From assembly GCF_014705715.1 (NCBI RefSeq), contig NZ_JACXLC010000001.1, positions 1,904,457 to 1,968,456 of the forward strand: 64,000 nt of DNA, written 5' to 3'. Positions 9,890-35,749 of the stretch are shown in pieces; positions within the stretch are counted from its first letter, which is position 1, and each line of letters opens with the position of its first letter. Under the pieces are notes generated by a model. That model was not told where the DNA came from and did no database searches. It worked only from the letters and a program-made list of their open reading frames with translations. This DNA comes from Erythrobacter rubeus. GTDB lineage: Bacteria > Pseudomonadota > Alphaproteobacteria > Sphingomonadales > Sphingomonadaceae. A program made the translations under genes and the position numbers.

Positions 9890-10000
9890 CACTCGAGCAA
9901 AACCAAAGACCGCGCGGGATGCCCCCTGCACGGCCAGCTAGTCGTCGCTCGAAACGAAAGGTATTTCGCGCCGGATCAATCCCTGAACCTGGCAACAAGC

Positions 10001-10190
10001 GACACGCCTCGGTCGGTCTCCTGGCTTACGGTTCAACATGTCTGGTCCTCACCTTCCCAAGGTTTCCCTCAGTGGCTGCAGCCCGGAGCGAGCCGCGCGA
10101 ACCAAACACTCACCGCTTACAGTTGCAGGGACAGCCGCGGATTTGCACCGCGTTCCCGTTACCGAAGTGATTGGGCAGCGTTAGCGTGGC
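10001..10190 (-). promoter_or_regulatory. Cobalamin (AdoCbl-type) riboswitch
   Basis: On the minus strand the region holds the hallmarks of the cobalamin aptamer: the conserved core GGTGCAAATCCGCGGCTG near 10131-10148, the following CCCTGCAACTGTAAGCGG, and the B12 box AAGCCAGGAGACC near 10016-10028. The ends can pair as CACGC (10184-10188) with GCGTG (10003-10007), giving a P1 stem. The aptamer lies about 125 bases before the BtuB-like receptor. No intrinsic terminator separates it from the gene, so control is more likely translational. Confidence 0.93.
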
Positions 10191-10197
10191 GAAAACA

Positions 10198-10230
10198 AAT
10201 GGGCAAGCGGCGACAGACCGCTTGCCCATT
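10198..10230 (-). terminator. Strong rho-independent terminator
   Basis: A perfect 13-bp stem (10198-10210 with 10218-10230) around a 7-base loop. On the minus strand the stem is followed by TGTTTTC. It ends the transcript of the polyproline lipoprotein gene just upstream and isolates it from the riboswitch. Confidence 0.85.
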
Positions 10231-32526: not shown

Positions 32527-33089
32527 TCGCGGACTCTTGCCGCATCACCGACAAGTCCGGAGCTCGCCGCCGTGCGCGCATTCGCGGCGCGGATCGGAGA
32601 AGCTTCAATCAGGAAATCGCCAAAGGCGCTGGCGAAAACAGTGCTGGCGTCTTCATCGCTCGAAGCGGCGGCGAGGGTAATCGGCGCGCCGGTAATTGGG
32701 GACACCATTTCACGAACCTGCGGTTCGGCTCCCGGGGCATCCGATACATCGGCGCGCGCAACGCGGATCTGACGCGGTGCGTCTGGCCCGAGGGGTTCGC
32801 CAAGACTGGCAAGCTGGCGTTCGCCTTCGAGATATTGATCCGCCCGCGGCGCTTCGAAACCGAATTCGACCGAATTCCAGTTGGCAAGCTGCCGCTGGCT
32901 CGCGCGGGTTTCGAATTCCGTTTCAAGCAATTTGGTCTGGCGTTCGAGCGAGACGATCTGGCGTTCGGCGAGCAGCACCTCGCTCTTCACCGCGTGAACG
33001 CGCAGGCTGAGAAGCACGAACAGCCCGAGGCACACCGCGAGAACAGCAGCCCAACCGAGCGAGCGAATCTGAGTGCGGGTAACGATCAT
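32523..33089 (-). CDS. ftsL: FtsL-like divisome protein with long C-terminal tail
   Basis: A 188-residue bitopic protein placed exactly where ftsL belongs, between rsmH and ftsI. A short cytoplasmic N-terminus is followed by one membrane helix (about 12-31, [20 protein letters not shown]) and a heptad-rich segment (about 35-75: [23 protein letters not shown]), as in FtsL. The ending [11 protein letters not shown] resembles the end of the FtsL coiled coil. After that, about 110 extra low-complexity Ala/Ser/Pro residues have no counterpart in classical FtsL (about 120 residues). Assignment rests on position and topology; sequence identity in this family is very low. Confidence 0.75.
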
Positions 33090-34024
33090 GCTGCCAAGTC
33101 CCTTGCTGGTGCGGCGGTGCGGATGGCGTGGCGCAGCGTGGATGAGCGCGCGCGCGGATTGCGGTCGATCTCCGCCTCGGACGGGCGGATCGCCTTGGAA
33201 ACCTTCGTAAATACCGGGGCAGGCCCAGGCACCTCGCCGGGGAGATGCCGCGACACAGCACGGCCCGCACCGGATGCTTCTTTAAGGAAGCGTTTGACGA
33301 TGCGATCCTCGAGGCTGTGAAAACTCACCACCGCGAGCACACCGCCTTCTTTCAGGAGCGCCTCTGCCGCGAGCAATCCTGCTTTCAGCTCGCCCAGTTC
33401 ATCATTCACGTGGATGCGAACCGCCTGGAATGTCCGAGTTGCAGGGTCTTTCTTGTCGTGGGGCTTGTGACCGAGAGCCTTGCGCACGACGCGGGCTAGT
33501 TCGCCGGTCGTTTCCAGCGGACGCGCAGCGACGATTGCACGAGCAACGCGGCGCGACTGCCGCTCCTCTCCGTATTGGTAAAGCACGTCCGCGATCGCCG
33601 CTTCGTCGGCGGTGTTGAGGAAGTCCGCCGCGCTCTCGCCTTCCTGGCTCATCCGCATGTCGAGCGGCCCGTCGCTGGAAAACGCGAACCCGCGCTCTTC
33701 CTGATCGAGCTGCATCGACGATACGCCGATATCCATCACCACGGCATCGACCTGCGGCACTCCGATGCGCTCCATTTCTTCGCGCATGCGCGAGAAACGT
33801 TCTGCGTGGAGCGAGAGCCGACCGTCGCTCTTCTCGGCCATGGCCGCACCGTCGCGGATCGCATTCGGATCGCGATCGAACGCATACACGCGCGCGCCGC
33901 CTTCGAGCAGCGCGGCCGTGTAACCGCCCGCGCCAAAGGTCGCGTCGATGATTTCCATGCCGGCTCGCGGATCGATAGCGGCGATTACTTCGTCAAGCAG
34001 GACAGGCACGTGAGGCGCGCTCAT
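33086..34024 (-). CDS. rsmH: 16S rRNA (cytosine-1402-N4)-methyltransferase
   Basis: Methylates the P-site cytosine 1402 of 16S rRNA using S-adenosylmethionine. The 312-residue protein contains [10 protein letters not shown] at the start, the SAM loop [44 protein letters not shown] and the C-terminal [16 protein letters not shown]. It is also called mraW. Overlaps mraZ upstream and ftsL downstream by 4 bases each. Confidence 0.97.
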
Positions 34025-34536
34025 GATTTGCCGCCCCCTTTCTTGGCGGCTTTTGCCGCGGCTTCCTTGACCATGCTGGCGCAGGTGACCTGCGCTCCGC
34101 GGAAACTCTTATCCATGCGCGCCAGTTCTTCGGGGTTCCAGACGAAGAAAAACTCGCCCGCCCCGTGGTAGTAAAGACCGTCGCCCACCTTGCCGAGATC
34201 GCGCAGGTGATCGGGCATCACGAAGCGGCCGCTATCGTCGAAGGGAAGCTGTTCGAAGCCGAAGAGCTGCTGGGCGCGGATATCGCGGTCGAATTCGGCG
34301 AGGTTCATCCGGATCGCGCGCTCTTCTTCGCGGTCGAGCTGTTTGTGGAGCTCATCGATCCGCGAAAGGCCGAAACCGATCAGGCAATCGAATTTCTCGT
34401 GTGCGGCCAGGCACAGCGTCTTGCTGCCGCCGGAGCCTTCCTTGACCGCTTTGCGAAACGCAGGGGGCAGAACAAAGCGGCCCTTATCGCCAGCGGGCGA
34501 ATAGGCTTTACCACTGTATGTCCCAAGCGCAGACAC
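34021..34536 (-). CDS. mraZ: Division/cell-wall cluster transcriptional regulator MraZ
   Basis: AbrB-like DNA-binding protein with two SpoVT-AbrB repeats; in E. coli it represses the dcw promoter. The 171-residue protein begins [20 protein letters not shown] (repeat 1) and has [21 protein letters not shown] as the second repeat, each with the family's G-R-F-V-(L/M)-P core. The C-terminal Lys/Ala-rich extension is longer than in E. coli (152 residues). I take the GTG at 34536 as start, because the upstream in-frame extension is Arg/Gly-rich and unlike the family. It heads the cluster; a candidate operator lies 164-209 bases upstream. Confidence 0.93.
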
Positions 34537-34903
34537 GCTTCCCAATCCCCTTATCCCTGACCGGCCACTCCTCCTTGAAATAGCCGCCGCACCAGACACA
34601 CCTTCCCCGTCGCCGCCACCGCGCGAGCGGTCACGACGCGCCAACCGACCAAGGTGACGCGGGGCAAACAGATATGTTTGATGGAACCCGGTAATATCGG
34701 GGATACGAGCGGGATGAAAGGGATTTTTACGGGAGATCTAGGGATTAAACGTTAAAATACTGATTTATAGCATTTTTTACGATTGGATACCGCTGCTCCT
34801 ATGACCTTAAAGGCCTCTCTCAATCCGTAATTTCCCGCAGGAACGCGCTGAAATCGTGCCGTTTCCCCAAATATCCCGCCCGAGTCCCTTGCCGGAGTCG
34901 CTA
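34537..34903. other. 367-base leader and promoter region of the dcw cluster
   Basis: No gene is supported here. Read toward mraZ, it starts with an AT-rich stretch around 34746-34790 (including CTATAAATC, a possible minus-10 element), then the repeat array at 34700-34745, then about 160 GC-rich bases before the GTG. If transcription begins in the AT-rich part, the mRNA has a leader near 200 bases. An AAGGAGG at 34573-34579 is followed by a GTG that opens only a five-codon frame, which I do not call as a gene. Confidence 0.5.
34700..34745 (+). promoter_or_regulatory. Candidate MraZ operator: five GGGA(T/G) direct repeats
   Basis: GGGAT occurs at 34700 (as GGGGAT from 34699, where the fourth G gives GGAT register), 34711, 34720 and 34741, with GGGAG at 34731. 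Start-to-start spacings are 11, 9, 11 and 10 bases, so the repeats fall on one face of the helix. E. coli MraZ binds TGGGN repeats with 5-base spacers (10-base period) upstream of mraZ. The size, period and position fit, although here the G-rich strand is opposite to mraZ and the T before GGG is not conserved. Confidence 0.55.
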
Positions 34904-35749
34904 TCAGGAAAGGCCGTCCCCACTTTTCCCCGATGAGATCTGTCCGAAGGTGAAGTCCATGACATCGCCCAATCCGTTCGGTTCCTTTTGCGCATGCTCG
35001 TGATCCGCATGGCCTTCGAAGATGAGGGCATCTGCGATCAGGACGACTTGCCCTTCACCGATCCGGCACCGCGCGACGACAGCGTCGGCCAATATCTCGC
35101 ATTCATTTGCGCCCTCTTCCCGCAGGCCGACCTTGCCTGCGAGAGCGACGGAAAACTGCGTGTCGTCCATGGCAACGGTGCGCGGCGCCGTGGGCTGATT
35201 GTCGTCGAAAGTGATCTCGAGGCCCCACCGGGCGACCACCGGAGGGATCAATGCAATATCGACCGGGCGCCGAGGATCGCCGAGCGGCAGATCGTGATGC
35301 GCGGTCAACATGGGATCGAGCACAAGCAGCAACTTGCCGCCCGCCGTCACCCATTCATCCAAAGCGACATTGTCCGCCGGGGACAAGCCGCGCGGCTGAA
35401 CGATCGCAAGCTTCTCAAGCCCCTCCAGCGGATCGATCTCGGGATCGCTTTCGGTAAGGCCGGCAATAGGCGAAAGGGTATCCAGCGGAAGCAGCTCGAA
35501 CTGCGCCTCGATCACCTCACGCTGATGCGACACCGGCGCTTCCGCCTTGAGGATTTCGCCTAGACCGGCCCCAAGTGGCCAGTAGAGCGGCAAGCTCGTC
35601 ATCAATCCGAGGCGAGGTTTGTCCGCGAAGTCGAGGGAACCCGGCTGCTCAACTGGTTCGGCCTCGGCAGTTCGCGCTTCACATCCCGAAAGGCTGCACT
35701 GCACGGCGATGAGGATCGCCATCGCTGACATTCTGCACCGAGAGCGCAC
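34904..35749 (-). CDS. GldG-like (ABC-transporter auxiliary) lipoprotein
   Basis: A 281-residue protein. The N-terminus (through SAMAILIAVQCSLSGC) is a lipoprotein signal with a lipobox at Cys23 if the GTG at 35749 is used. The mature part resembles the GldG / ABC_transp_aux fold: LAIVQPRGLSPADNVALDEW, then VTAGGKLLLVLDPM and VVARWGLEITFDDN, the usual 'open the window and read the DP loop' order of that family. In other bacteria such proteins go with an ABC permease; none is encoded here. The GTG overlaps the upstream stop by one base (TAGTG), so the two genes are coupled. An internal ATG at 35731 is the alternative start. Confidence 0.65.
   Translation of the reverse strand: MRSRCRMSAMAILIAVQCSLSGCEARTAEAEPVEQPGSLDFADKPRLGLMTSLPLYWPLGAGLGEILKAEAPVSHQREVIEAQFELLPLDTLSPIAGLTESDPEIDPLEGLEKLAIVQPRGLSPADNVALDEWVTAGGKLLLVLDPMLTAHHDLPLGDPRRPVDIALIPPVVARWGLEITFDDNQPTAPRTVAMDDTQFSVALAGKVGLREEGANECEILADAVVARCRIGEGQVVLIADALIFEGHADHEHAQKEPNGLGDVMDFTFGQISSGKSGDGLS

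What the first reader, a model, noticed from the sequence alone, without database searches (positions are those of the whole stretch)
34699..34745. Candidate MraZ operator: five GGGA(T/G) repeats at helical spacing
Five near-identical pentamers start at 34700, 34711, 34720, 34731 and 34741, with spacings of 11, 9, 11 and 10 bases. They lie upstream of mraZ, the only place such an array occurs in the window as far as I could read. E. coli MraZ is known to bind TGGGN repeats with a 10-base period upstream of its own gene. Here the G-rich strand is opposite to mraZ and the leading T is lost, so the lineage may use a variant site (GGGAT) or a reversed orientation. The array also lies about 165 bases from the start codon, implying a long leader.
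Basis: partly seen in the sequence, partly recalled or inferred. Interest (0 to 1): 0.6.

Follow-up and report, generated by a model that had tools for sequence, protein, structure and literature searches.

The report
Paired MraZ operators before cell-division genes
A row of short DNA repeats in front of a bacterium's main cell-division genes is very probably the docking site of the repressor MraZ, and comparison of many relatives uncovered a second, reversed docking site whose distance varies in whole turns of the DNA helix, as if the repressor ties the DNA into a loop.

Summary
The five GGGAK repeats (34700-34745) are real and far from chance: three or more such boxes at 9-11 bp spacing occur upstream of mraZ in 66 of 110 family loci, against 1 of 2200 shuffles. 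They best fit the MraZ operator. The G-rich strand opposite mraZ is the rule in the class (28 of 28 scored loci); E. coli has it on the mraZ strand. The change from TGGGA to CGGGA/NGGGA belongs to this family. Likely mechanism: autorepression.

(1) A second, inverted operator (GGGA-N6-GGGA on the mraZ strand) lies mostly 90-190 bp further upstream. Its distance changes between species in steps of about 10.5-11 bp: R=0.69 in 56 loci, 0.90 in 26 held-out loci, 0.885 in 52 further loci; controls are flat. This points to MraZ looping the DNA. (2) The region after the array encodes a conserved RNA structure (30 pairs, strong covariation) without an Rfam match.

No binding, looping or transcript end was measured; the promoter is a weak prediction. 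New variant of a known kind.

The parts
34700..34745 (+). Main operator array: five GGGAK boxes (34700, 34711, 34720, 34731, 34741), spacing 11, 9, 11, 10; antisense to mraZ
   Evidence: conserved in 66 of 110 family loci
34864..34888 (-). Second, inverted operator: three GGGA boxes at 34864-34867, 34874-34877, 34885-34888 on the mraZ strand; the pair 34874/34864 begins 133 bp from the first main box
   Evidence: helical phasing
34917..34930 (-). Distal GGGA-N6-GGGA pair (34917-34920, 34927-34930), 186 bp from the first main box, inside the 3' end of the upstream gene
34714..34719 (-). Guessed -35 element TTTCAT between boxes of the main array; only 2 of 6 bases of TTGACA
   Evidence: column conservation in 69 loci (T 84%, T 83%); not found by the consensus scan
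34691..34696 (-). Guessed -10 element TATTAC, 17 bp further; start of transcription would be near 34683
   Evidence: T 88%, A 87% at its first two columns; not found by the consensus scan
34577..34684 (-). Conserved RNA structure in the presumed leader: closing stem, inner stem and two hairpins (model R1)
   Evidence: window hit 65 bits, but this sequence is in the training set
34021..34536 (-). mraZ, GTG start at 34536, next to rsmH; divergent sequence, MraZ fold
33086..34024 (-). rsmH (mraW), next gene of the cluster

Best explanation
The GGGAK array is the operator of MraZ in an Erythrobacter (Sphingomonadales). MraZ binds the five boxes as a ring oligomer, one box per helical turn, over or beside the mraZ promoter, and so represses its own gene and the genes transcribed with it (rsmH and onward). 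A second set of boxes in opposite orientation sits on the same helical face, mostly 90-190 bp upstream; MraZ bound at both is proposed to be joined, bending the DNA between them into a repression loop. Transcripts that escape would start near 34683 with a conserved structured leader. Shown by sequence: conservation, orientation, box change, inverted partner, helical phasing, MraZ fold of the protein, RNA covariation. Inferred: binding, repression, looping, promoter, the leader's role. The confidence given is for the core claim (MraZ operator, autorepression); looping carries the probability of the novel case. It was lowered from 0.85 because the co-occurrence test and the promoter turned out weaker on rechecking.
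For: Array conservation; near-uniqueness (one hit in each of 52 genomes of 397, backwards-pattern control 1 hit). Absence from all 10 usable rsmH loci of genomes in which two or three searches found no mraZ (Fisher p 8e-5 for all, 0.075 for the family alone). 10-bp box period as in E. coli, read in L066. Top 16 PDB fold matches all MraZ, including MraZ-promoter complexes. Second operator: GGGA chains of two or more on the mraZ strand within 400 bp in 70 of 110 loci against 122 of 2200 shuffles. Phasing: R(10.5)=0.687 in 56 loci, median 0.688 with one locus per genus over 34 genera, phase 7.3; held-out set 26 of 26 loci with a pair, R=0.903, phase 7.75; 52 of 73 further new loci with a pair, R=0.885, phase 7.4. 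Controls: array to start 0.13, pair to start 0.11, seven other words 0.04-0.26 (p 0.058 or more). Within one genus the distance jumps by about a turn (genus 78: 123, 133, 145, 155; genus 47: 112, 123, 135, 144).
Against: No binding, expression or transcript end was measured. 44 of 110 family loci have fewer than three perfect TCCC boxes, also L002-L004 of the own genus (2, 1, 2), and 31 of 73 new named loci. 345 of 397 family genomes lack the exact 4-box pattern. Two family genomes, G094 and G156, keep a mraZ beside rsmH but have at most two boxes. A consensus scan of 34500-34960 found no sigma-70-type promoter. PMC5089854 (section read) reports leaders of 70 nt or less for most species outside Rhodobacteraceae, which speaks against a long leader by analogy. 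28 of 84 anchored loci have no perfect second pair. Part of the phasing could come from boxes gained and lost along one long array. Related loci are not independent, so p-values overstate. Pfam scores this MraZ below its cut-off (20.8 against 23 bits).
Confidence: 0.82

Rival explanations
1. The upstream boxes and the main array are the two ends of one long MraZ filament on a single helical face; intermediate boxes have decayed, and no loop forms.
For: Pairs inside one locus are themselves mostly spaced near whole turns (22, 33, 42-43, 53 bp; also 38 and 40); two loci have pairs at 167, 145 and 123.
Against: The boxes switch strand between the two arrays; no perfect pair starts closer than 79 bp to the main array in the 56 loci, 90 bp in the 26 and 92 bp in the 52; the best-fitting period (11.0, bootstrap 10.36-11.11) is nearer the helix repeat than a 10-bp box unit.
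Confidence: 0.3
2. The array is bound by another regulator of the dcw cluster, such as NtrX or CenR, rather than by MraZ.
For: In Rhodobacter sphaeroides NtrX acts directly on mraZ-mraY (PMC7240162, passages) and CenR was detected at the mraZ promoter (PMC9275681, passages).
Against: The NtrX site is given as GCA-N9-TGC and the CenR site as TGA-N8-TGA, and the CenR paper found no such motif near the mraZ start; neither is a GGGA array. The array was not seen in 10 usable loci without a detected mraZ and has the period and GGG core of MraZ sites elsewhere.
Confidence: 0.08
3. The repeats are a chance or mutational feature of G-rich DNA without function.
For: GGGAK is a short word, 197 times in the window.
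Against: GGGAK is rarer than expected (197 against 299); position and spacing are conserved across the family, 66 of 110 against 1 of 2200.
Confidence: 0.01
4. MraZ bound here activates rather than represses the promoter, since three boxes lie upstream of the guessed -35.
For: Box positions relative to the guessed promoter.
Against: Two boxes lie within the guessed promoter, and MraZ is described as a repressor in E. coli (PMC8475190, passage). The promoter itself is uncertain.
Confidence: 0.1

Closest known systems
MraZ operator of Escherichia coli (L066, NC_000913)
   Same: Direct repeats of a GGG core at 10-bp period in front of mraZ (GTGGGA-GTGGGG-GTGGGA, read)
   Different: There on the mraZ strand and downstream of a TTGACA sequence; here on the opposite strand, with CGGGA/NGGGA boxes and an inverted partner upstream
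MraZ operators of other genomes of the same class (L036-L065)
   Same: Same antisense orientation, 28 of 28 scored loci (one, L062, with a single CCCA only)
   Different: The base after CCC is A (TGGG on the other strand) in 97% of 90 boxes; no sense TGGG chain of two or more in any of the 28; by eye the array often begins right after TTGAC(A)
MraZ operator of Burkholderia cenocepacia (PMC7761207, section 2.1.3 read)
   Same: Four repeats of seven bases with 3-base spacers in a fragment that MraZ shifts
   Different: Downstream of the -10 and over the start of transcription; MraZ did not bind the upstream fragment (-386 to -136)
Mollicute MraZ site AAAGTG[T/G] (PMC8475190, passage) and MraZ-promoter structures (PDB 9r4j, 9sz7, titles)
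   Same: Direct repeats; the protein fold matches
   Different: Other core sequence; I know of no inverted distant array there (recalled)
sRNA UpsM in the dcw leader of Rhodobacter sphaeroides (PMC5089854, sections 8 and 9 read)
   Same: A structured leader in front of mraZ
   Different: UpsM ends in a strong terminator and was called special to Rhodobacteraceae; no terminator-like site was found in 34500-34960, and the model of the leader found nothing in 114 other genomes of a class sample

Membership tests
MraZ operator | Direct repeats with a GGG core at about 10-bp period upstream of mraZ | tested here: met
MraZ operator | TGGGN core (leading T present), as in E. coli and the rest of the class | tested here: not met
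   the bases before the five own boxes are G, C, A, C, A; A after TCCC in 2 of 187 boxes of closer and 9 of 64 of more distant family loci, against 97% of 90 in the class
MraZ operator | Occurs with mraZ and is absent without it | tested here: inconclusive
   0 of 10 usable mraZ-less rsmH loci have three boxes (p 8e-5), but within the family there are only 3, of one genus (p 0.075), and two family genomes with mraZ also lack the array
MraZ operator | Bound by the MraZ protein | not testable with these tools
   needs gel shift or footprint
MraZ protein family | MraZ fold | tested here: met
   AlphaFold2 pLDDT 88; top 16 PDB matches all MraZ, E 7.5e-8 to 4.9e-5
MraZ protein family | Sequence model over its curated cut-off | tested here: not met
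   Pfam 20.8 against 23 bits; NCBIfam 48 against 162
MraZ protein family | Next to rsmH, at the head of dcw | tested here: met
Repression loop between two operators | Two operators whose spacing is held to whole helical turns | tested here: met
Repression loop between two operators | Both operators needed; half-turn insertions relieve repression | not testable with these tools
   reporter assay needed
UpsM-type dcw leader sRNA | Strong intrinsic terminator in the leader | tested here: not met
   no terminator-like site in 34500-34960 (a simple consensus scan)

The most novel reading that the evidence does not exclude
In Sphingomonadales MraZ controls the dcw cluster through a DNA loop between two inverted, helically phased operators, a mode I did not find described for MraZ, and the transcript starts with a new family of structured leader RNA that adds a second layer of control over cell-division genes.
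Probability: 0.55. Interest if true: 0.75.

Novelty: new variant of a known kind. Interest (0 to 1): 0.62.

Why it matters
MraZ is a very widely conserved bacterial transcription factor at the head of the cell-division cluster, yet in my view it is unclear why it forms large rings. Two inverted arrays locked to the same helical face over a spacing that varies from about 90 to 190 bp are the signature expected of a loop, and make a concrete, cheap test possible (5-bp against 10-bp insertions). The change of strand between classes and of box sequence in one family, together with a strongly diverged MraZ, offers a natural case of a regulator and its operator changing together. The leader adds a possible new regulatory RNA in front of essential genes.

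Tried and rejected
Chance: rejected. Known RNA family in the leader: none at gathering threshold there, and in 33900-35000 only two chance-level matches at E 3 and 3.7, neither over the leader on its strand. Alternative hairpin of the leader's 5' strand (switch-like): helix lengths hardly better than shuffles, mean 4.32 against 4.02; dropped. RNAalifold on the first leader alignment A1 (41 rows) gave only 11 pairs; the 26-row A2 was used, leaving out 15 rows chosen by eye for misalignment. NtrX and CenR as binders: sites differ. Phmmer against the PDB did not find MraZ; the fold search did. A consensus scan found neither promoter nor terminator in 34500-34960. Corrected on rechecking: I first counted 13 mraZ-less genomes; a model search showed that G094 and G156 do have a mraZ beside rsmH, which my crude motif scan had missed, and in G267 rsmH is split between contigs, so its upstream is not seen; 10 are left.

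Papers: the E. coli MraZ paper is not held. Ten searches (two of them with no paper, the others showing 8-20 rows of longer lists) showed no title or abstract start on an inverted or looping MraZ operator or on this leader; most subscription papers are not held.

Dropped rows: 2 of 30 class loci without a located start; 26 of 110 family loci not anchored by the box patterns; 17 of 73 new named loci not anchored and 7 of 80 already seen. The 110 family loci are part of 192 genomes with a match; some of the same genus were skipped by hand. Model R1 was run on 100 of the 110 family loci and on 44 of the 80 named loci.

Full report
What is there. The window lies in a 3.04-Mb genome. mraZ runs 34536 to 34021 on the minus strand, followed by rsmH. 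Five GGGAK boxes start at 34700, 34711, 34720, 34731 and 34741 on the plus strand; on the mraZ strand they read TCCC.

Is it more than chance? In the window no other chain of three or more GGGA at 9-11 bp exists on either strand except an inverted one at 34864-34888. In the whole genome the three-box pattern has five hits, four at this locus. I took 110 mraZ upstream regions of the family (30 loci and 80 stretches; 192 of 199 genomes had a match). 66 of 110 have three or more TCCC at 9-11 bp spacing and 45 of these four or five; 1 of 2200 dinucleotide shuffles has three. An exact four-box pattern occurs once in each of 52 of 397 family genomes and not in the other 345; the same pattern read backwards gave 1 hit in all.

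Strand and box. In 28 of 28 scored class loci outside the family (the 30 best of 321 matched genomes, two without a located start) the CCCA chain on the mraZ strand is longer than the TGGG chain; 23 have three or more boxes, and one (L062) only a single CCCA. In 30 loci from other classes of the phylum (best of 93 matched genomes) 19 were sense, 10 tied and 1 antisense by the same measure, which misses GTG boxes without GGG. E. coli is sense. The base after CCC is A in 97% of 90 class boxes, but after TCCC in 2 of 187 boxes of closer and 9 of 64 of more distant family loci (5% and 21% with a looser box). The lost T is a family change. It goes with a divergent MraZ: Pfam 20.8 bits against a cut-off of 23, yet an AlphaFold2 model (pLDDT 88) has MraZ structures as its first 16 matches in the PDB.

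Link to MraZ. I looked upstream of rsmH in 13 genomes thought to lack mraZ. A recheck with another model found mraZ in two of them, G094 and G156, and one more (G267) has a split rsmH. In the remaining 10 (3 of the family, one genus) no three-box chain lies within 900 bp upstream. Fisher p is 8e-5 for all and 0.075 for the family alone. G094 and G156 keep mraZ with at most two boxes. This is support, not proof.

Second operator and phasing. GGGA-N6-GGGA pairs on the mraZ strand lie upstream of the main array. The distance from the start of the pair to the first main box ranges from 79 to 268 bp, mostly 100-190, and falls into clusters near 101, 112, 123, 133, 144, 155, 166, 175 and 185. For the nearest pair in 56 of 84 anchored loci the mean vector length at 10.5 bp is 0.687, by exp(-nR^2) about 3e-12 (my arithmetic; the formula printed there breaks down at that size). 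One locus per genus (34 genera, table typed) gives a median of 0.688 and a minimum of 0.584. In 12 loci with only a half-degenerate pair R is 0.755 with the same phase. Distances from array or pair to the start of the match are flat (0.13 and 0.11), as are seven other words (0.04-0.26, p 0.058 or more); single GGGA, which includes the pairs, gives 0.44. I then fetched 26 loci not used before, chosen for a perfect four-box array: 26 of 26 have a pair, R 0.903, phase 7.75 against the predicted 7.3. Of 73 further new loci from named genomes, 42 have three or more boxes, 56 were anchored and 52 have a pair: R 0.885, phase 7.4. The first two sets pooled, taken as 66 different genus-distance values, have a best period of 11.0, 10.36-11.11 by bootstrap over genera; distances jittered by up to 5.5 bp never exceed R 0.40 in 1000 draws against 0.78 observed. 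Related loci are not independent, so the numbers are descriptive, but the distance shifts by about a turn within single genera. The nearest relative (L226) has pairs at 186 and 92, the window at 186 and 133. A-rich and T-rich columns about 33, 21 and 10 bp before the array, again some 11 bp apart, hint at curved DNA. In the 28 class loci no sense TGGG chain of two or more was seen, so the second operator looks specific to this family.

Promoter and leader. Conserved columns in 69 loci could be a promoter with TTNNNN between the third and fourth box and TANNNN 17 bp on; here TTTCAT and TATTAC. It is a guess: TTTCAT keeps 2 of 6 consensus bases, and a consensus scan found no promoter and no terminator in 34500-34960. 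Just after it, 26 aligned sequences share a structure of four helices and 30 pairs: 85.8% of cells paired against 78.2 in shuffles, 64 cells changed on both sides against 22.6 (none of 500 shuffles as high), and slid versions at 40-54% paired; the structure was derived from these sequences, which favours it in the slid control. Its model finds 73 of 100 family loci on the mraZ strand at E 0.01 or better, 47 of the 74 not used to build it (one locus, L021, also matches on the other strand), and 43 of 44 named loci, the miss (L304) being L013 seen before. In whole genomes it hits 25 of 147 of the order, once each, and in a class sample of 115 only the own genome; these scans use stricter filters that lose weak matches. 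For the 17 of 25 genomes where one search gives the place of mraZ, the hit lies directly upstream of it in 17 (compared by eye). What the RNA does is unknown; a role in translation or stability of the cluster's message is my guess.

How it most likely works. MraZ rings read the five boxes on one face of the helix and cover or neighbour the promoter: autorepression, as described for E. coli (passage in PMC8475190). The inverted upstream boxes on the same face are best explained by a loop closed by MraZ. The steps from sequence to binding, repression and looping are inference. The main rival is a long one-sided filament, which predicts the same phasing but no need for the strand switch.

Known or new. 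The operator is of a known kind in period, place and partner, and a variant in box and strand. The paired, phased arrangement and the leader RNA did not appear in the titles and abstract starts that my ten paper searches listed; the library lacks most subscription journals, among them the E. coli paper, so absence from print is not shown.

Noticed in passing
9994-10198 (-): Cobalamin riboswitch, 88.5 bits, the only Rfam match at gathering threshold in the window.
   Followed up: no
34904-35749 (-): Gene directly upstream of mraZ and read in the same direction, weakly like the ABC_transp_aux family (28.8 bits, below cut-off); the distal boxes lie inside its 3' end.
   Followed up: no
L038, L039, L044, L050, L065 upstream of mraZ: Sequence resembling the 3' end of RNase P RNA (recalled motif, not tested) lies upstream of mraZ in several class genomes; PMC2704228 lists RNase P RNA next to mraZ in Pelagibacter (passage).
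   Followed up: no
L002-L004, L227-L233: Several species of or near the own genus keep only one or two perfect boxes although mraZ and the leader structure are kept: the main array seems to drift there.
   Followed up: partly
L217, L220: Three GGGA pairs at 167, 145 and 123 bp, that is 22-bp steps, a longer upstream array.
   Followed up: no
G094 and G156 (L196, L195): Family members with a mraZ beside rsmH but at most two boxes: either another operator or lost control.
   Followed up: no
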